A stretch of DNA of 44,675 bases from positions 1 through 44,675 of the forward strand of contig JANLFJ010000024.1 of the NCBI GenBank assembly GCA_024655825.1, read 5' to 3'. Numbering within the stretch: the stretch's first letter is position 1; each line of letters starts with the position of its first letter. The DNA is from Peptococcaceae bacterium. GTDB taxonomy: Bacteria; Bacillota; Peptococcia; DRI-13; PHAD01. The notes beneath the pieces were generated by a model. It was not told the origin of the DNA, ran no database searches, and worked only from the letters and a program-made list of their open reading frames with translations. Below, one piece after another: positions 1 to 8,510 of the stretch. A program made the translations under genes and the position numbers.

Positions 1-24
1 TAATCTGCATTTTTTATTTCCTTT

Positions 25-235
25 CTGCGGCATAAAATTGCAGCTGGTGCAGTAATCGTAGAACGATATTCTACCCTGCGTGCTTCCCAAATGGGAGCAA
101 CATTCCGTGGTGCACCAGATTACTGAGGTCCGTCTATAAGTCGGACTCGAAGTACCAAGGTTTTTCGACCTCATCGCCAGCCGCAGTGTATATTTTCTAC
201 TCGAGGGGGTTTTCATCCTTCCGATGGTGCCGCAG
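25..235 (+). ncRNA. candidate structured RNA (about 211 nt)
   Basis: No coding frame explains this stretch, but it folds extensively. A closing stem pairs 25-33 with 227-235 (CTGCGGC with GCCGCAG, then A-U and U-G). Inside are hairpins at 58-63/69-74, 81-88/93-99 (one bulged base), 128-132/142-146 and 147-151/164-168 (extended by ACC/GGT), and a stem 172-176/222-226. The stems 44-50/112-118 and 50-57/118-125 together form a pseudoknot or two alternative states. Wobble pairs at 33-227, 24-236 and 152-163 are G-U only if the plus strand is transcribed, which sets the strand call. Size and complexity would fit a large Firmicute RNA such as the raiA motif, but I cannot identify the family by eye. 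No promoter or terminator is visible. Confidence 0.5.
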
Positions 236-365
236 GCGGCATGATGGTCTATAATGATATTCAAATATGGCTTTGTGTCCTATTTTGCCATATTATTCAA
301 TTTTATTTTATTCGCTATAACTTTAAATTATCCTTCTTAATTCTGTCTTTTTTACATATATTTAG

Positions 366-410
366 TTTTTTTTTTACAAAAGAAAGCCTGAAGTTAACAC
401 CTCAGGCTTT
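366..410 (-). terminator. rho-independent terminator of the kor operon
   Basis: On the minus strand the 9-bp stem 402-410/383-391 (AAAGCCTGA with TCAGGCTTT) is followed by a T-rich run. It lies just downstream of the last gene of the minus-strand operon. Confidence 0.85.
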
Positions 411-427
411 TATCAAACTAATGACAT

Positions 428-979
428 TTAATTTACGGCCAGCAGTCTATGAGCCTCATCCAGACCGGCAAAAAAGGCCCTCTTGTTCACTTCCAAAAAA
501 CCGGGCTTCCCTGTAAGCTTCTCGCCAATGGTTCTTTCGACTTCTTCCGGGTCCAATGCCCTCGTGACAGCGATAAATGCTCCCACCATAACCATGTTGG
601 CTGATTTAGCGGAACCCAATTTTTCCGCAATTTCGCTGGCCGGTATGTACACGGCCCTGATGTCTTCCCTCCTGGCTTCCCTTTTTACCAGGGAACTGTT
701 GACAAGAATAACTCCTCCCGGTTTTACTTCAGGCTCAAACCTGCCCAGGGAAGGCTCATTCATCACAATGACCGCGTCAGCCTGGTTGACAACCGGGGAA
801 CCTATTTCCTCCCCGGAGATGATCACGGTGCAGTTGGCGGTCCCTCCCCGCTGCTCCGGGCCGTAAGAAGGATAGTACGTGGCATATTTCCCCGCATAAG
901 CGGCAGCATGACCCAGGATTTGACCGGCCAGCATAACCCCCTGGCCGCCGAAGCCGGCTATCAGCAAGCTAGTTTCCAC
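428..979 (-). CDS. korC: 2-oxoacid:ferredoxin oxidoreductase, gamma subunit
   Basis: Gamma subunit (183 aa) of a pyruvate/2-oxoglutarate-type ferredoxin oxidoreductase, which makes acyl-CoA and CO2 from 2-oxoacids while reducing ferredoxin in the cytoplasm. The N-terminal GFGGQGVMLAG motif and GPEQRGGTANC are characteristic of the POR gamma family. The start is GTG at 979, preceded by a GGGAG ribosome site, and it overlaps the stop of the beta subunit by 11 nt, so the two are probably translationally coupled. It is the last gene of a delta-alpha-beta-gamma operon that ends in a terminator. The order and subunit sizes favour a 2-oxoglutarate (Kor) enzyme, but a branched-chain 2-oxoacid (Vor) enzyme cannot be excluded. 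Confidence 0.9.
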   Translation of the reverse strand: METSLLIAGFGGQGVMLAGQILGHAAAYAGKYATYYPSYGPEQRGGTANCTVIISGEEIGSPVVNQADAVIVMNEPSLGRFEPEVKPGGVILVNSSLVKREARREDIRAVYIPASEIAEKLGSAKSANMVMVGAFIAVTRALDPEEVERTIGEKLTGKPGFLEVNKRAFFAGLDEAHRLLAVN

Positions 980-1727
980 GGCTTTCGCTCCCTTCCGGCG
1001 TCTTATACTCTCCCAGAGGGTAATAAGGAATCATGTTTTCCGAGATCCAGTTGAGCGATTCCTCCGGGGAAAGCCCCCAGTTGGTTGGGCAGTTGGAAAG
1101 AAGTTCAACAAAAGCAAATCCTTTATTCTCAAGCTGGAGGGTGAAGGCTTTTTTTATGCCTTTTTTTGCTTTGAGGATATTGGCAGGCGTGTTTAAGGCA
1201 AACCTGGCCACGTATACAGGCGCTTTGAGCGTCGACAATAGTTCGCACATGCGGATGGGATAACCGCTCATCTCAACCTGGCGGCCGCCCTGGGCAGTGG
1301 TCGACTTTTGTCCCACCAGGGTAGTCGGCGCCATTTGGCCCCCTGTCATCCCGTAGATGCTGTTATTGATAAAGACCGCGCTGAATTTCTCGCCCCTGTT
1401 GGCCGCATGGATTATCTCCGCCAGGCCTATGGCTGCCAGGTCGCCGTCACCCTGGTAAGTAAAAACAAAACTATCCGGCCTGCTGCGCTTGTATCCCGTG
1501 GCCACAGCCGGGGCTCGCCCGTGTGCCGCATGAATCGTGTCAAAATTTAAATAGGTGTAAGCTAAAGTGGCGCATCCCACCGGCATAATCCCAACGGCTC
1601 TTTCCCTGAGGCTCATCTCGTCCAGGAGTTCGGCAATCAGCCGCTGGGCCACGCCGTGCATGCAGCCGGGGCAGTACCCGCTCGAGCTTTTATACAATGA
1701 TACCGGTCTTTGATACGTTTTTTCCAT
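969..1727 (-). CDS. korB: 2-oxoacid:ferredoxin oxidoreductase, beta subunit
   Basis: Thiamine-pyrophosphate-binding beta subunit (252 aa). The N-terminal CPGCMHG is the usual cysteine motif. The TPP/Mg motif starts at GDGDLAAIG and ends at NNSIYGMTGGQ, as in all POR beta subunits. The reading frame is open further upstream, but ATG at 1727 is chosen because a strong GGAGGGAG ribosome site precedes it and the alpha-subunit stop lies 4 nt away. The longer version would add a low-complexity leader. It works with the adjacent alpha, gamma and ferredoxin subunits. The exact substrate cannot be read from sequence alone. Confidence 0.92.
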   Translation of the reverse strand: MEKTYQRPVSLYKSSSGYCPGCMHGVAQRLIAELLDEMSLRERAVGIMPVGCATLAYTYLNFDTIHAAHGRAPAVATGYKRSRPDSFVFTYQGDGDLAAIGLAEIIHAANRGEKFSAVFINNSIYGMTGGQMAPTTLVGQKSTTAQGGRQVEMSGYPIRMCELLSTLKAPVYVARFALNTPANILKAKKGIKKAFTLQLENKGFAFVELLSNCPTNWGLSPEESLNWISENMIPYYPLGEYKTPEGSESRGN

Positions 1728-1731
1728 ATTG

Positions 1732-2799
1732 CTATTTTCTCCCTCCTCCGGCCAACTCCAGCACCTTTTCTTTAACTTCCAGCGGCGAGACGATGACCCC
1801 GCCTGAACGGCCAAGAAAATAAACCGGTAATCTGTCGCCGACTCCCAGCCTCACATCTTCAATCATTTGGCCGGGAATGGTCATTTCCACTACAAGTATT
1901 CCCTTCACCTTTTTCTCGCCAAGACCAGCAAACGAGTCGTAAGGAAAAGGGACCAGCGTTGCCGGGCGGATCAGTCCAGCCTTAAGGCCCTCTTTTCTTA
2001 ATTCCCTCACCGAAGTCCTGGCGACTCTTGCGCTGGTACCATACGCGGCTATCACGTATTCCGCGTCATCAGTCATAAACTCCTCCACGACGGCATCTTC
2101 TCGCTGCCACCTTTCATACATACCGGCCCGCTTTTTATTGAAATCCTCCAGGGCCAGAGCGTCAAGTATAAAGGAACGGATAAGTCGGGGTTCCCTTCCC
2201 CGGCAACCGTCGGCAATCCAATCCCCCTTGTCCGGTAGTTCCTTTTTGTATGGCGGCAGCGTCACAGATTCCATCATCGCCCCGATAACGCCGTCAACCA
2301 ACACCATCACCGGGTTGCGGTCCCGGTCCGCATAATCAAAAGCCCGGCAGGTAAGATCAACCGCTTCCTGGACAGTGGAAGGCGCCATCACCATGATTTT
2401 GAACCCTCCATGACCCGGGGCTTTTGTAGCTTGAAAGTAATCGTTCTGCCCCGGCATGATATGACCAAGGCCCGGGCCAGCCCTCATGACATACACGATA
2501 ACCGCCGGCAAGGCAGCGCCAGCCAAGTAAGAAATGCCTTCCGCTTTCAGGGAAAGTCCCGGCCCCGAGGAGGAAGTCATGGCTCTTTTGCCTGCTGCCG
2601 AAGCGCCATACAGCATATTAATTGAGGCCACTTCACTTTCTCCCTGGATGAATACCCCGCCTAGTTCCGGCAGCCTTCGCGACATGTATTCCGGAATCTC
2701 GTTCTGAGGGGTTATGGGATACCCCGCAAAGAAAGAACATCCCGCGCGCAGGGCTGCCTCAGCGATGGCCTCGTTCCCCTTCATAAACAGCTTTTCCAT
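1732..2799 (-). CDS. korA: 2-oxoacid:ferredoxin oxidoreductase, alpha subunit
   Basis: Alpha subunit (355 aa), which forms the catalytic core with the TPP-binding beta subunit. Family signatures are the AGYPITPQNEIPEYM segment, the SSSGPGLSLKAEG loop and GQNDYFQATK. The ATG at 2799 is preferred: a GGGGG ribosome site sits 5 nt upstream, against only 2 nt for the adjacent ATG at 2802. A further in-frame upstream extension has no support. It sits between the ferredoxin subunit (22-nt gap) and the beta subunit (4-nt gap), so all four genes form one transcript. It most resembles 2-oxoglutarate/branched-chain enzymes rather than fused pyruvate enzymes. Confidence 0.92.
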   Translation of the reverse strand: MEKLFMKGNEAIAEAALRAGCSFFAGYPITPQNEIPEYMSRRLPELGGVFIQGESEVASINMLYGASAAGKRAMTSSSGPGLSLKAEGISYLAGAALPAVIVYVMRAGPGLGHIMPGQNDYFQATKAPGHGGFKIMVMAPSTVQEAVDLTCRAFDYADRDRNPVMVLVDGVIGAMMESVTLPPYKKELPDKGDWIADGCRGREPRLIRSFILDALALEDFNKKRAGMYERWQREDAVVEEFMTDDAEYVIAAYGTSARVARTSVRELRKEGLKAGLIRPATLVPFPYDSFAGLGEKKVKGILVVEMTIPGQMIEDVRLGVGDRLPVYFLGRSGGVIVSPLEVKEKVLELAGGGRK

Positions 2800-2821
2800 C
2801 ATATCCCCCTTTAAACCAGTT

Positions 2822-3025
2822 TTATTTATAAACCTCGATGGCCGCATCCGGGCAAATCACGGCGCACAACCCGCAGCCCGTACATTCTTCGGCCCGGTAC
2901 TGCTCGGCAGGCCTGTATCCCTGGGAATTGGCGTAATCTCCTGTTTTGATGATGTTCTGGGGACAGACCCCGATACACAACCTGCACCCTTTGCATAGTT
3001 CCACGTTGACCTCAATTTTGGGCAT
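2822..3025 (-). CDS. korD: 2-oxoacid:ferredoxin oxidoreductase, delta (2x[4Fe-4S] ferredoxin) subunit
   Basis: Small ferredoxin subunit (67 aa) with two CxxCxxCxxxCP clusters (CKGCRLCIGVCP and CTGCGLCAVICP). It should pass electrons from the TPP site of the alpha-beta core to soluble ferredoxin. The start is ATG at 3025, behind the strong GAGGAGGT site; the 8 codons upstream that stay open lie on that ribosome site. It is the first gene of the kor operon. The AT-rich 3050-3170 region upstream must hold the promoter, but I see no unambiguous -35/-10 pair there. Confidence 0.92.
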   Translation of the reverse strand: MPKIEVNVELCKGCRLCIGVCPQNIIKTGDYANSQGYRPAEQYRAEECTGCGLCAVICPDAAIEVYK

Positions 3026-3164
3026 TTCACGACCTCCTCTCCCTGCCAATACATACTGCCTGGCTGCGGCACTATTTCACTTCACCATATATTTTAACTT
3101 ATTTATGAAGGATTTTAAAACTGTTTATTTTAATATACTAGTCTGAGTATTTTTGAATAAGCCG

Positions 3165-3216
3165 GCAAAAACCAGGCTTGTCGCCTCGCATTATACCCTG
3201 CGCTGCGACAAGCCTG
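3165..3216 (-). terminator. terminator of the glutamate synthase operon
   Basis: A perfect 12-bp stem pairs CAGGCTTGTCGC (3173-3184) with 3205-3216. On the minus strand it is followed by GTTTTTGCC. It lies about 50 nt past the stop of the last glt gene. The 20-nt loop contains TATAAT on the minus strand, which is probably chance. Confidence 0.75.
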
Positions 3217-3265
3217 TACAAAACTTGCGGCTCTCGGCATGCTTTCTTTATTTCGTGGGGCTTGT

Positions 3266-4006
3266 TCACCATCCGGCATACATGTTGCCGTAAGGTCGCT
3301 TGTTGTAAGGAATCAACTTTAAAAAAGGCTTATCATAGATCTCTTCCTTGCTTTTTTGGAAATAATCAGCGAAACGACTAACGTATTTTTCCAGCACGGC
3401 ATGGTCTTCTCTTTCCAGGGGTACAACCCTGACTTCTTTTCCCAGCTGGGAATCATCCACCTCGCCCCGCAAGTAAATAACGCCGCCGTGCATGCCCGTG
3501 CCGCAATAATTGCCAACTATCTTTTCTCCAGGTTCAAGTCCCAATCCCAAAACAATTTGGACCCCGCCCGCCATGTACTCGGCAAAAAAATCACCCGCTT
3601 TTTTACCGACAACAATCACCGGTACCTTATCGAGAAAACCCTTCATATGGATGCCCACCCGGCATCCGACATCGCCCAGGATATAGATTTCGCCGCCGCG
3701 CATGGCATAACCCAGCGTGTCACGGGCATCCCCGTAGATAACGACGGTCCCGTCATTCATGGTATTCCCCACCCCGTCCTGGGCGTTCCCATGCACCTCG
3801 AGAACGGGACCGTCCATGAAGGCGGCCAGGTCGTTCCCCGGGACGCCCTTGATGATGATCCTTCCCCTGCCTTTCAGCCCATCTCCAATGTAACGCTGCC
3901 CATTGACGTTTTTAATTTTAACCTCCCTGGCCCCATGTTCCAGGAAGTGTTTGACCATCTCGTTCAACTCTTTGTAATGCATGCCGCGCGCGTCAATGGA
4001 AACCAT
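3266..4006 (-). CDS. glutamate synthase GXGXG-domain subunit (GltB3-like)
   Basis: A 246-aa protein equal to the C-terminal beta-helix (GXGXG) domain of the glutamate synthase large subunit, here encoded as a separate gene as in archaeal-type split enzymes. The repeated G-turns (GRGRIIIKG, GNAQDGVGNTM, GDARDTLGYAMRGG, GDVGCRVGIHMKG) and the GNYCGTGMHGG segment support this. Related domains occur in tungsten/molybdenum formylmethanofuran dehydrogenase subunit C. The start ATG at 4006 abuts the stop of the upstream oxidoreductase gene, so the two are probably coupled. In the conventional enzyme this domain is structural, holding the amidotransferase and FMN domains; the same role is inferred here. 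Confidence 0.9.
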   Translation of the reverse strand: MVSIDARGMHYKELNEMVKHFLEHGAREVKIKNVNGQRYIGDGLKGRGRIIIKGVPGNDLAAFMDGPVLEVHGNAQDGVGNTMNDGTVVIYGDARDTLGYAMRGGEIYILGDVGCRVGIHMKGFLDKVPVIVVGKKAGDFFAEYMAGGVQIVLGLGLEPGEKIVGNYCGTGMHGGVIYLRGEVDDSQLGKEVRVVPLEREDHAVLEKYVSRFADYFQKSKEEIYDKPFLKLIPYNKRPYGNMYAGW

Positions 4007-5265
4007 TATAACCCGCCTCCCGCCAGCACTCTTTCCCTGCGCAGTTCACACGGCCAATCAAGATAGCCGAAATCAGTTTTCACCAGTTTTTCTTTAAAAG
4101 ACCCAACGTTCGTTCCTTCCTGAATCAGTCCGGTCAGCATGCCTATCCGGTTAATATCCTTCATGGCAATAAACCCCACCAGCCGGTTATTCTTTAGAAC
4201 AATCTTCCGGTATGTCCTCTCATCCGGGTCCAGGACTGCCAGTTCCTCGTAATCAGGACCGCCCGGCACGCCGGCTGTGGCAATGGAATAACCGAAAAAC
4301 CCGATGGCATTCATGGCAAACCCTCCGGAAAAGGCGGCCTCATCTCCCGCCATGTTCAACCCGGCTATCTCTCCCTGCCGGTAAGCATTGGGCAGGATGG
4401 GGATCACACGCCGCACACCCAGCACGGCATCATCGCCCTCCGCCACATCGCCTGCGGCATAAATGCCGGGAAGGCCGGTCTCCATTTTTTTGTTAACCAC
4501 AATACCCCTGTTTACCGGAACCGGGCTGTTCTTCACCAGGTCCGTGTTGGGAATAACACCGATGGCCACAATAAGCAGGTCGCATTCCAGCCTGTTCCCA
4601 TCCGCCAGTTCCACGCCTGTTACCCGCTCTTCGCCCAGTACCCGCTTCACAGTATTTTCGAAAACAAACCTGATCCCGTGATTTTCCATTACGTCCCTAA
4701 CCAGGGCACCCGCCTGTTCGTCCAGGATCGAGCTCAGCACCCTGTTGGCCAGTTCCACCACGATAACTTCCGCCCCAAGACAGGACAGTGCTTCCGCAGC
4801 TTTCATGCCTATTAAGCCTGCCCCTATTATGATCGCCCTTGCCCGGCCATCAAGAGCTTTTTCAATCGCCTTAACATCATCGAGTTTATGAAAGGTGAAA
4901 ATGTTTTTCTTATCCAGCCCGTCGATAGCCGGTACAAAAGGTTTTCCGCCCGTGGCCACAAGCAGCCTGTCATAGGGTATCTCATCCCCGCAGGCCAGCA
5001 CAACCTTTCTGCCTTTCGTATCCAGAGCGGCGGCGGGTTTTCCGCCAATAAAACGGATGCCGTTGTGCTCATAAAAGCCCAAAGGCCGGTAATACATCTT
5101 ATCTATCTTCACTTTGCCCGCCAGGTAATAAGATATCAGGGGGCGGGAATAAGTGTGATAAATCTCCGCCGAAACAACAGTAATTCTGCCGGTTTTATCC
5201 CTTTTGCGTATTCCTTCCACTGCGCCGATGGCTGCAGCTGAGTTGCCAACAATGCAGTATTCCAC
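4006..5265 (-). CDS. FAD/NAD(P)-dependent oxidoreductase of the glutamate synthase operon
   Basis: A 419-aa pyridine-nucleotide-disulfide-type oxidoreductase without the paired redox cysteines. It has an N-terminal FAD site (GNSAAAIGAVEGIR), an NAD(P) Rossmann motif in the middle (IIGAGLIGMKAAEAL), and the second FAD motif GIYAAGDVAE. GTG at 5265 is chosen as start because AAGGAGG sits 8 nt upstream; the longer TTG start lies on the ribosome site. Its place between the polyferredoxin and GXGXG subunit genes suggests it feeds electrons from NAD(P)H (or ferredoxin) to the synthase, replacing the usual GltD. It resembles the NirB/rubredoxin-reductase branch. The electron donor is not determinable here. 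Confidence 0.85.
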   Translation of the reverse strand: MEYCIVGNSAAAIGAVEGIRKRDKTGRITVVSAEIYHTYSRPLISYYLAGKVKIDKMYYRPLGFYEHNGIRFIGGKPAAALDTKGRKVVLACGDEIPYDRLLVATGGKPFVPAIDGLDKKNIFTFHKLDDVKAIEKALDGRARAIIIGAGLIGMKAAEALSCLGAEVIVVELANRVLSSILDEQAGALVRDVMENHGIRFVFENTVKRVLGEERVTGVELADGNRLECDLLIVAIGVIPNTDLVKNSPVPVNRGIVVNKKMETGLPGIYAAGDVAEGDDAVLGVRRVIPILPNAYRQGEIAGLNMAGDEAAFSGGFAMNAIGFFGYSIATAGVPGGPDYEELAVLDPDERTYRKIVLKNNRLVGFIAMKDINRIGMLTGLIQEGTNVGSFKEKLVKTDFGYLDWPCELRRERVLAGGGL

Positions 5266-5279
5266 TGCGCCTCCCTCCT

Positions 5280-5741
5280 TCAAGCCTCTTTCTCTCTTTC
5301 ACCACGATACTCCAGCGCCCCGTTGGGGCAACCGGCGACACAGGCCGGGACCTCATGGATACCGCTGCACATGTCGCATTTTGACGCCGCTTTTTTTCCC
5401 CGCTCATCGCGGGCAACAGCGCCATGCGGGCAGACCAAGATGCATGTCCAGCAGCCCACGCAGCGCGACTCGTCATTATTAACAACACCTGTTGCCGGGT
5501 CCCTTTGCATCGCCCCGGTGATACACGCCTTGACACAGGGGGCATCTTCACAGTGACGGCACTGCAAGGCAAAAGAAACGGGCCGTTGTTCCTCCACAAT
5601 CACCCGCGGCAAGGGCCGGGGAAAAGTTTTCTTGTAAGCCTTCACGATATTGTCTTTATAGGGGGAATGGGCTGTGATGCAGTGCACCTGGCACAAACCG
5701 CAGCCCGTGCAGTATTCTTCCCGGGCATACACCTTTTTCAT
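5280..5741 (-). CDS. four-cluster ferredoxin of the glutamate synthase operon
   Basis: A 153-aa electron-transfer protein of the HycB/CooF/DmsB type with four cysteine groups: CTGCGLCQVHC, CRHCEDAPCVKAC, CVGCWTCILVCP, and CDMC...CVAGCP, enough for four [4Fe-4S] clusters. ATG at 5741 is used because AAGGAGG lies 9 nt upstream; the in-frame TTG two codons earlier is too close to it. The stop overlaps the leader of the FAD oxidoreductase gene. It probably wires the FAD protein to the ferredoxin-like N-terminus of the FMN-containing synthase subunit. Confidence 0.88.
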   Translation of the reverse strand: MKKVYAREEYCTGCGLCQVHCITAHSPYKDNIVKAYKKTFPRPLPRVIVEEQRPVSFALQCRHCEDAPCVKACITGAMQRDPATGVVNNDESRCVGCWTCILVCPHGAVARDERGKKAASKCDMCSGIHEVPACVAGCPNGALEYRGEREKEA

Positions 5742-5757
5742 GACCAAAGGCCTCCTT

Positions 5758-7266
5758 CTATTCTCCAGCGGCTTTTATGCCGAGAATCTCCAGTTCTTTC
5801 TCCGTCAAGCCAATGCCCCGCAGCATTAAACGGTTCCCGCGCAGGCTCTCAAGGGCGTTGATGCCCATGCCTCCCAGCATTTCCTGGATTTCATGCTTCC
5901 AGCCCCGGAGAAGATTGGCCGCCCTCTGGGCTCCCAGATCGGGATTAAGTCGCTTGGTGAGATGGGGATCCTGCGTGGCAATACCCCAGTTGCACTTGCC
6001 TGTATAACACTTCTGGCACATATGGCAGCCCAGGGCCAACAGGGCGGCGCTCGCTATATACACGGCATCGGCGCCGAGGGCGACGGCCTTGACCACATCG
6101 GAACTGCTGCGAATACTGCCCGCCACCACGAGCGAGACCTCGTTGCGGATGCCCTCATTTCGCAAGCGCGTATCCACCGCGGCCAGAGCAAACTCGACCG
6201 GTATGCCGACATTGTCACGGATTCTTAAAGGCGCGGCTCCCGTTCCGCCGCGGTACCCGTCAATGGCGATATAATCCGCACCGGCCCTGGCAATACCCGA
6301 GGCGATGGCGGCTACATTGTGGACCGCCGCTATTTTTACCCCCACCGGCTTTTGGTAGCCGGTGGCTTCCTTCAGGGAAAAAATCAGCTGCCTCAAGTCT
6401 TCAATCGAATAAATATCGTGATGGGGCGCCGGTGAAAGCGCATCCGTCCCTTCAGGGATCATCCGTGTTTCCGAAATCTCTTTGCCCACTTTTTCTCCCG
6501 GTAAATGACCCCCGATCCCCGGTTTTGCGCCCTGGCCAATTTTAATTTCGACGGCCGAACCAGCTTCCAGGTATTCGGAATGGACCCCGAAACGCCCGGA
6601 AGCAACCTGAACAATGCAATTTTCGCCGTACGGGTAAAGTTCTTTGTGCAGCCCGCCTTCCCCCGTATTAAAATAAGTTCCCTCTTGCCGGGCGGCCCGG
6701 GCCAGCGACTTGATGGCATTCAGACTGATTGAACCAAAAGACATGGCCGAAAACATCACGGGAATATCCAGTTCCAGCTGGGGCGGTATCTTTTCCTTGA
6801 GCCTGCCGTTTTCAAAAACAAGGGACGCAGGTTTGCGCCCCAGAAAAGTTTTGCATTCCATCGGCTCTCTCAAGGGGTCAATCGAGGGGTTCGTCACCTG
6901 GCTCGCGTTTAAAAGCATATGGTCCCAGTAAACCGGGTAAGGTCGATCATTGCCCATCCCCGTCAGGAGAACCCCGCCTGTTTCTGCCTGGATATAAATG
7001 GACCTGATTACCTCCGGCGTCCAGTTGGCATTTTTGCGCAATTCATTGGGAGAACTGCGAATAACCAGGGCCCTGGTAGGACAAAGGGTAACACAGCGCT
7101 GGCAGTTGACACATTTCATTTCATCTGAATAAACTTCCCCGTCTTCATCATCATAGTAATGGACTTCGTTGGCGCATTGCTGGACGCACACCCTGCACTG
7201 GATACAACGGTCCTTGTTTCTCTCTATTAAAAAATCGGGTGTAAGGTAACTCTTTAATAAAGCCAT
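5758..7266 (-). CDS. glutamate synthase FMN/Fe-S subunit with N-terminal ferredoxin domain (GltB2-like)
   Basis: A 502-aa catalytic subunit that reduces 2-iminoglutarate to glutamate on FMN. Residues about 20-70 hold two ferredoxin clusters (CIQCRVCVQQC and CVNCQRCVTLC). The rest is the FMN-binding glutamate synthase barrel, with GEGGLHKELYPYGE, KIGQGAKPGIGGHLPG and DGYRGGTGAAP. Near the C-terminus CHMCQKCYTGKCNWG is the 3Fe-4S cluster motif. The size and fused ferredoxin match archaeal-type GltB2 rather than the ~1500-aa bacterial GltB. It is flanked by the amidotransferase gene upstream (23-nt gap) and the polyferredoxin gene downstream (16-nt gap). Confidence 0.93.
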   Translation of the reverse strand: MALLKSYLTPDFLIERNKDRCIQCRVCVQQCANEVHYYDDEDGEVYSDEMKCVNCQRCVTLCPTRALVIRSSPNELRKNANWTPEVIRSIYIQAETGGVLLTGMGNDRPYPVYWDHMLLNASQVTNPSIDPLREPMECKTFLGRKPASLVFENGRLKEKIPPQLELDIPVMFSAMSFGSISLNAIKSLARAARQEGTYFNTGEGGLHKELYPYGENCIVQVASGRFGVHSEYLEAGSAVEIKIGQGAKPGIGGHLPGEKVGKEISETRMIPEGTDALSPAPHHDIYSIEDLRQLIFSLKEATGYQKPVGVKIAAVHNVAAIASGIARAGADYIAIDGYRGGTGAAPLRIRDNVGIPVEFALAAVDTRLRNEGIRNEVSLVVAGSIRSSSDVVKAVALGADAVYIASAALLALGCHMCQKCYTGKCNWGIATQDPHLTKRLNPDLGAQRAANLLRGWKHEIQEMLGGMGINALESLRGNRLMLRGIGLTEKELEILGIKAAGE

Positions 7267-7289
7267 GTAAATCTACCCTTTCTCCTGTC

Positions 7290-8426
7290 TCATGAGTTGA
7301 TGGCAATCTTCTCGCTGCCCTGCGCAGGGCCGTACTGTGAAGCTGCATTCTCCAGCAAGCCGATGATTGGTTCCCCGCCGCGTGGAGCCCAAATTTTATC
7401 TGGCTTGGGGCACACCTCGCGAATACCGGCTTCCTCGCTGGCAACGTAAAGAAAATCCCCTTTCGTGGCGGCAACGCAAGGGCGCAGCTTAATCCGGTCA
7501 TTGAGAGCGATCATGCCCTGGCTGGTACCAACCAGGATGGAGAAAGGCCCGTTTACCAAAAGACTTCCGTAAACAGCGCGCACGGCTTTCACCGTTTCCT
7601 TCCTGCCGGGCTCCATCCGGTCGATTTCCTGCCAGAACGGGCTGGCCATGGCCATTACTACCACCTCTAAAGAAAGACCCTGCTTTCTCGTCAGGAAATC
7701 AAAGATATACGCCATTACCTCGGTATCGGTGAGCAACGTGCACCGGTAGCCATACATCTCCAAGAAACGGCGGTTGGCGTCATAAGAAGAAATTTCCCCA
7801 TTATGGACAACGGAGCATTCAAGCAGGGTAAAGGGATGCGCTCCTCCCCACCAGCCGGGCGTATTTGTGGGAAAACGTCCGTGCGCCGTCCAGAGCCAAG
7901 CCCTGTACTCGTCAAGCCTGTAAAATTCTCCTATATCTTCGGGATACCCCACTCCCTTGAAAGCCCCCATGTTCTTACCGCTGGAAAAGATATATGCTCC
8001 TTCCAGCTCGCTGTTTGTCTTCATCACGAATTTTACGACGTACTCGTCCTCGGGCAATCCCGCCTGCATCATCATTTTGGCCTTGGGCTGCACAAAATAA
8101 CGCCAGATAACGGGGGCATCCTTAATAGCCTTCATTTCCCTGACCGGTACAGGCTCGTCGTAAACCACAGTAAAATACTTGTTTAACTGGACTTCCGCCG
8201 CTTCTTTCGCCTCTTTACTGTCAAAAAAGAAATGAAAGGCGAAATCATCTTTAAACTCCGGGTAAATACCGTAAGCGGCAAACCCGCCGCCCAGGCCGTT
8301 GGACCGATCATGCATGACGGCAATGGACCTGATAATATCCTGCCCGCTGGTCAGCTTTCCTTTTTTATTCATAATACCGCTGATTGAACACCCCGATGGT
8401 ATTCTCACCGCACCTTCTCGCAGCAT
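7290..8426 (-). CDS. glutamate synthase glutamine amidotransferase subunit (GltB1-like)
   Basis: A 378-aa class-II glutamine amidotransferase, which hydrolyses glutamine and channels ammonia to the FMN subunit. The probable catalytic cysteine is in PSGCSISGIMN near residue 13, so a short propeptide would be removed. The HGRFPTNTPGWWGGAHPF and VHNGEISSYDANRRF motifs are the substrate-binding loops of GltB/PurF-type domains. ATG at 8426 is taken as start (AGGAG about 11 nt upstream); a GTG 11 codons earlier is possible but its ribosome site is too close. First gene of the five-gene glt operon, downstream of a good sigma-A promoter. Confidence 0.9.
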   Translation of the reverse strand: MLREGAVRIPSGCSISGIMNKKGKLTSGQDIIRSIAVMHDRSNGLGGGFAAYGIYPEFKDDFAFHFFFDSKEAKEAAEVQLNKYFTVVYDEPVPVREMKAIKDAPVIWRYFVQPKAKMMMQAGLPEDEYVVKFVMKTNSELEGAYIFSSGKNMGAFKGVGYPEDIGEFYRLDEYRAWLWTAHGRFPTNTPGWWGGAHPFTLLECSVVHNGEISSYDANRRFLEMYGYRCTLLTDTEVMAYIFDFLTRKQGLSLEVVVMAMASPFWQEIDRMEPGRKETVKAVRAVYGSLLVNGPFSILVGTSQGMIALNDRIKLRPCVAATKGDFLYVASEEAGIREVCPKPDKIWAPRGGEPIIGLLENAASQYGPAQGSEKIAINS

Positions 8427-8510
8427 ACCCGTTCCCTCTCCTTTCTCCCAACGGGACACCTCCCGCTGAATCCATGCAGTATAATAACAATCGCTTTTGT
8501 TTTATCCTAT

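What the first reader, a model, noticed from the sequence alone, without database searches (positions are those of the whole stretch)
25..235. Highly structured ~211-nt RNA candidate with pseudoknot or switching potential
A nine-pair closing stem, several hairpins and two mutually crossing stems (44-50/112-118 and 50-57/118-125) occupy a non-coding stretch. Three G-U pairs are only allowed on the plus strand. Size and complexity recall large Firmicute RNAs, possibly the raiA motif.
Basis: partly seen in the sequence, partly recalled or inferred. Interest (0 to 1): 0.6.

Follow-up and report, generated by a model that had tools for sequence, protein, structure and literature searches.

The report
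IS110 transposon bridge RNA, minus strand
The folded stretch at the window's left edge is the left end of a jumping gene of the IS110 family; it encodes a 'bridge RNA' whose short guide sequences choose where the element inserts, here with the two guides in the reverse order to that described for IS110-type elements.

Summary
The fold is real but belongs to the other strand, and it is neither raiA nor a riboswitch. Window 250-11 (minus) is the non-coding left end (LE) of an IS110-family insertion sequence, cut off by the contig end just inside its recombinase gene. A 95% identical copy elsewhere in the genome sits directly upstream of a DEDD recombinase (PF01548 + PF02371). In 33 homologous LEs a 42-pair consensus forms in 97% of cells and 20 pairs show compensatory changes. 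Read as minus-strand RNA the conserved pairs include 156 G-U cells, against 17 if read as plus-strand RNA. The first loop carries a 5-nt guide plus AG core that matches each element's own insertion flank (34-42 of 46 elements per position; chance beyond). Its other side is complementary to the far flank; the second loop carries the element's own right end. This is a bridge RNA (seekRNA). Two variant features: the RNA lies upstream of the recombinase (IS110 style) but its target guides are in IS1111 order; and gene-less 55-68-bp LE+RE mini-elements are dispersed in this and nine other Bacillota genomes, probably moved in trans.

The parts
11..250 (-). Non-coding left end (LE) of the IS110-family element, from the AG core (250-249) to the base before the recombinase start codon
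   Evidence: 95% copy at C23 directly upstream of the recombinase; same left end in homologous elements of other genera
1..10 (-). First codons (ATG CAG ATT A) of the recombinase, cut by the contig end
   Evidence: Sequence compared with the C23 copy and homologues
249..250 (-). AG core dinucleotide at the left junction; host flank CATTAT is 256-251
   Evidence: Invariant in the alignment; same AG at the right end of the elements
228..241 (-). LE tip palindrome/hairpin (arms 236-241 and 228-233), also kept in the mini-elements; role unknown
   Evidence: Helix 1 of the consensus: 96% paired, 4 of 6 pairs with compensatory changes
190..216 (-). Promoter-like region: conserved GATGAAAA and, in homologues, a -10-like box 14 nt before GGCTGG; weak in this copy
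   Evidence: 13 of 33 homologues have at least 5/6 of TATAAT, shuffles mean 4.3, max 9; window copy only 4/6
25..187 (-). Bridge RNA (approximate ends), about 163 nt
   Evidence: Conserved fold and covariation; ends inferred from closing stem and -10 position
180..186 (-). 5' arm of the conserved closing stem, pairs with 25-31
   Evidence: 33 double-changed cells, 0/500 shuffles
25..31 (-). 3' arm of the conserved closing stem, just upstream of the Shine-Dalgarno-like AAAGG (24-20)
   Evidence: sequence
159..165 (-). Right-target guide in the 5' side of the target-binding loop (register approximate)
   Evidence: Family-level complementarity to the right flank: 118 matches against 83.7 +- 5.5, max of 5000 permutations 103
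134..140 (-). Left-target guide CTTAT + core AG in the 3' side of the target-binding loop; own left flank ATTAT + AG (4 of 5 guide letters plus core)
   Evidence: Family-level match to the insertion flank: 41, 42, 38, 39, 34 of 46 at -1 to -5
118..125 (-).
50..57 (-). 3' arm of the basal stem of the donor-binding hairpin
71..78 (-). Left-donor guide CAGGGTAG, identical to the right end (RE) of this element family
   Evidence: Guide against RE 370 of 384 letters, permutations 288 +- 5.8, max 309; five RE ends in this genome end TTTTCAGGGTAG

Best explanation
The feature is the LE of an IS110-family insertion sequence whose minus strand encodes a bridge RNA (seekRNA) of about 163 nt. The RNA binds the element's DEDD recombinase. 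Its first (target-binding) loop pairs with both strands of a target of about 12 bp through two 5-nt guides that share the AG core; its second (donor-binding) loop pairs with the RE-LE junction of the circular element; the recombinase then exchanges strands at the core. Shown here: position upstream of the recombinase, strand, conserved covarying fold, left-target guide, right-target guide, left-donor guide. Inferred: transcription, exact RNA ends, recombinase binding, catalysis. In this subfamily the guide that pairs with the target's top strand lies 5' of the guide that pairs with the bottom strand, the order reported for IS1111-type, not IS110-type, elements.
For: Own-genome copy upstream of a PF01548+PF02371 recombinase. 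80 homologous loci. Consensus of 42 pairs, 97.3% of cells paired, 20 pairs and 66 cells with compensatory changes, 0/500 shuffles. G-U asymmetry 156:17 for the minus strand. Left-target guide equals the insertion flank: 215 of 322 letters against 97.9 +- 7.8, max of 10000 permutations 136, with a sharp fall to chance at -6. Right-target guide. Left-donor guide equals RE. The anatomy agrees with the published bridge RNA/seekRNA (PMC11208160; PMC11187229).
Against: The full C23 copy does not match its own flank, so its guide has diverged or its site was rearranged. The right-donor guide was not found. The window copy has only a weak -10 box. No transcript data. Permutation tests do not remove relatedness of the elements, although the flanks are independent host sequence. 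The window copy's recombinase and right end are missing from the contig.
Confidence: 0.96

Rival explanations
1. A stand-alone plus-strand host ncRNA (raiA, 6S, OLE-like) or riboswitch.
For: Strong plus-strand fold, z -4.5.
Against: No Rfam match; G-U asymmetry 156:17 for the other strand; the stretch moves with a transposon and occurs in several copies.
Confidence: 0.01
2. The fold is mainly a leader or a DNA structure: a 5' UTR hairpin controlling recombinase translation, or DNA palindromes bound by the recombinase.
For: The 3' arm of the closing stem lies just upstream of the Shine-Dalgarno, so an effect on translation is possible as well; the LE tip hairpin lies outside the RNA and may act as DNA.
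Against: Neither idea predicts loop letters that track each element's own insertion flank and its own right end.
Confidence: 0.03
3. The short 210-251 copies are REP-like host repeats that the element uses as target, rather than mini-elements derived from it.
For: IS621 inserts in REP sequences; ten short copies are dispersed in this genome.
Against: The same tip belongs to the element itself in other genera; one short copy is a clean insertion in a transposase gene that is uninterrupted in two homologues; similar LE+RE units occur in unrelated Bacillota genomes.
Confidence: 0.07

Closest known systems
IS621 bridge RNA (IS110 group; Durrant et al. 2024, PMC11208160)
   Same: LE-encoded RNA of similar length (177 nt), target-binding loop followed by donor-binding loop, core included in the guides, DEDD + Transposase_20 recombinase.
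   Different: IS621 has the bottom-strand guide on the 5' side and the top-strand guide on the 3' side, an 8-9-nt left guide, CT core and a junction promoter. Here the order is reversed, the left guide is 5 nt + AG, and homologues show a -10 box inside LE.
ISEc21 seekRNA (IS110 family; Siddiquee et al. 2024, PMC11187229)
   Same: RNA gene upstream of tnp; guides to both target strands.
   Different: Top-strand match lies 3' of the bottom-strand match; transposase 358 aa against 406 aa here.
IS1111-type seekRNAs (ISEc11, ISPa11, ISKpn4; PMC11187229)
   Same: Top-strand match lies 5' of the bottom-strand match, as here.
   Different: Their RNA lies downstream of tnp and transposases are 330-350 aa; here upstream and 406 aa.
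Laboratory mini-IS donors (22-bp donor of IS621; LE 29 bp + RE 16 bp of ISEc21)
   Same: Ends alone, moved with RNA and recombinase in trans; the natural mini-elements here are LE about 41-47 bp + RE about 16-20 bp.
   Different: The mini-elements here are natural and dispersed; their movement is inferred, not shown.

Membership tests
IS110-family bridge RNA / seekRNA | Encoded in the non-coding end of an element with a DEDD (PF01548) + PF02371 recombinase | tested here: met
   C23 copy and homologous loci; in the window only the first codons remain
IS110-family bridge RNA / seekRNA | Conserved fold with two guide-bearing hairpins (target-binding, then donor-binding) | tested here: met
IS110-family bridge RNA / seekRNA | Target guides match both flanks of the insertion | tested here: met
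   Left. Right. Family-level tests; the window copy matches 4 of 5 left letters plus core
IS110-family bridge RNA / seekRNA | Left-donor guide matches the element's right end | tested here: met
   370/384 against 288 +- 5.8
IS110-family bridge RNA / seekRNA | Right-donor guide matches the element's left end | tested here: inconclusive
   No convincing column pairs
IS110-family bridge RNA / seekRNA | RNA expressed, bound by the recombinase, required for recombination | not testable with these tools
   Needs RNA-seq and in vivo or in vitro assays
IS110-type guide order (IS621, ISEc21) | Bottom-strand guide 5', top-strand guide 3' | tested here: not met
   IS621-type assignment gives no signal: 75 against 76.4 +- 4.6 and 51 against 54.2 +- 5.1
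IS1111 group | RNA gene downstream of the transposase; transposase 330-350 aa | tested here: not met
   RNA upstream; 406 aa
IS1111 group | Top-strand guide 5' of bottom-strand guide | tested here: met
IS1111 group | Subterminal inverted repeats of 7-17 bp | not tested
   Not examined
raiA RNA, 6S RNA, OLE RNA | Rfam covariance-model match | tested here: not met
   No match in the window at gathering score; none to these at E<=10 in window 1-500

The most novel reading that the evidence does not exclude
A widespread Bacillota subfamily of IS110 elements couples an upstream bridge RNA with the IS1111-type guide order, so that RNA position and guide order are separable traits; and it mobilises natural 55-68-bp elements (LE tip + RE tip, no gene and no RNA) in trans, which would be RNA-guided miniature transposons.
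Probability: 0.5. Interest if true: 0.65.

Novelty: new variant of a known kind. Interest (0 to 1): 0.5.

Why it matters
Bridge RNAs were described in 2024 from a handful of elements. A large subfamily with readable 5-nt guides, a different guide order and many natural reprogrammings offers new orthologues for programmable recombination and a way to test what sets guide order. Natural mini-elements would show that the donor ends alone are mobile in nature, as the laboratory mini-IS assays predict. It is also a reminder that structured-RNA calls at contig ends can be broken insertion-sequence ends.

Tried and rejected
Rfam families (raiA, 6S, OLE, riboswitches): no match. The idea that the short 210-251 repeats are REP-like targets: rejected, because that terminus is conserved in elements of other genera and one short copy is a clean insertion in a transposase gene that is uninterrupted in two homologues. 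IS621-type guide order: no signal. Right-donor guide by column covariation: nothing convincing. My first guesses for the alternative stems were off by one register; corrected. Literature searches for IS110-derived MITEs: none described as such in the papers read. The ISEc11 control record is not held.

Full report
What was checked. The stretch 25-235 lies at the very start of the window, which begins at base 1 of contig C24. It folds well on both strands (plus z -4.5, minus z -3.6). Rfam gives no match in the window at gathering score and, for window 1-500 at E<=10, nothing to raiA, 6S or OLE.

What it is attached to. A search of the same genome found a 95% copy at C23, partial copies at C45 and C33, and many short copies of about 210-251. 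The first bases of the window, read on the minus strand, are ATGCAGATTA, the start of the same gene. The contig most likely broke there because the element is repeated: five further right ends of the same element lie elsewhere, some at contig starts or ends, each with a different flank.

Homologues. A scan of bacterial genomes gave 80 loci, the best with recombinases 57-83% identical, from Paenibacillus, Bacillus, Brevibacillus, Thermoanaerobacter, Desulfosporosinus and others. Nearly all share the same left end: AG core, tip palindrome, GATGAAAA, a -10-like box in many, then a conserved structured segment that runs to the Shine-Dalgarno region.

Structure and strand. RNAalifold on 33 left ends gives 42 pairs; 97.3% of cells pair, 20 pairs have changes on both sides, and none of 500 shuffles reaches that. 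The closing stem 25-31/180-186, which is not in that consensus (it overlaps part of its basal helix), covaries as well. Over 49 pairs the minus-strand reading has 156 G-U cells and the plus-strand reading 17, so the RNA is on the minus strand. The -10-like box, significant over the family but weak in this copy, points the same way. The region 22-188 alone folds with z -2.7 on the minus strand.

Guides. In the first loop, the letters before the conserved AG on the 3' side equal the genomic letters just left of the element: 41, 42, 38, 39 and 34 of 46 elements at positions -1 to -5, and chance from -6 on. The letters on the 5' side of that loop are complementary to the genomic letters right of the element. 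The second loop carries the element's own right end plus core. These are the defining relations of bridge RNAs/seekRNAs (PMC11208160; PMC11187229). The window copy matches its own left flank at 4 of 5 guide letters plus core. The C23 copy does not match its flank, which I count as evidence against, or as a diverged guide or rearranged site. Permutations do not remove relatedness among elements, but insertion flanks are independent host sequence and the sharp fall at -6 is not expected from relatedness. Six of the elements sit directly right of another IS110 right end, with a guide to match.

Order of the guides. In IS621 and ISEc21 the guide pairing with the bottom strand is 5' and the one pairing with the top strand is 3'; in IS1111-type RNAs the order is reversed. 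Here the RNA is upstream, as in IS110-type elements, but the order is that of IS1111; the IS621-type assignment on the same data gives no signal. The conclusion does not depend on which strand is transcribed, because reverse-complementing the RNA keeps the top-strand match 5'. ISEc21 was fetched as a check of the convention; reading its sequence by eye (printed), short matches at the expected places agree with the published order. I did not find the combination of upstream RNA and IS1111 order in the text of the two papers; their extended figures and supplements were not available to me, so priority is uncertain.

Mini-elements. Ten short copies in this genome consist of roughly 41 bp of the left tip joined to roughly 16 bp of the right tip, most with AG at both ends; a few are truncated or degenerate. 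One lies inside a transposase gene; with one AG kept, the two flanks read in one frame, and two homologues in the same genome are uninterrupted across the site. A pattern for left tip plus right tip within a few bases occurs 23 times in 10 of 398 Bacillota genomes, and never for the pattern read backwards; most units outside this genome are 64-68 bp, and four of the nine other genomes gave no close recombinase at E 1e-20. I infer miniature non-autonomous IS110 elements moved in trans. Movement is not shown, and their targets were not matched to a resident guide.

Verdict. It is a bridge RNA of an IS110-family element, a known kind, in a variant with IS1111-type guide order.

Noticed in passing
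L030:15632-15688 (C54) and further copies in L027, L028, L030, L031, L032, L034; other genomes L187-L206: Dispersed 47-68-bp mini-elements made of the LE tip and RE tip of this IS110 subfamily; one has clean empty-site homologues in the same genome. Possibly RNA-guided miniature transposons.
   Followed up: partly
L062, L063, L064, L067, L068, L089 (left flanks): Six homologous elements are inserted directly right of another IS110 right end (TTTTCA...AG), and their target guides are programmed for that sequence: guide-directed stacking of IS110 on IS110.
   Followed up: partly
L205 (G301 C40, near the contig start): A mini-element joined exactly at the AG of the target-binding loop of a bridge-RNA gene, as if the guide's own DNA had served as target; may also be an assembly or rearrangement effect.
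   Followed up: no
L027:9056-9063: The C23 copy of the recombinase carries a run of N between two near-identical 77-bp stretches of its 5' end, which looks like an assembly artefact.
   Followed up: no
L027:7770-7790: The C23 element's right end reads TTTTCAGAGTAGGGTAG instead of TTTTCAGGGTAG, and its target guide does not match its left flank; cause unknown.
   Followed up: no
window 383-8459: Beyond the element: a terminator-like hairpin at 383-410, then minus-strand genes that look like 2-oxoacid:ferredoxin oxidoreductase subunits, ferredoxin-type proteins and glutamate-synthase-like proteins (reading of ORF translations; no family search run).
   Followed up: no
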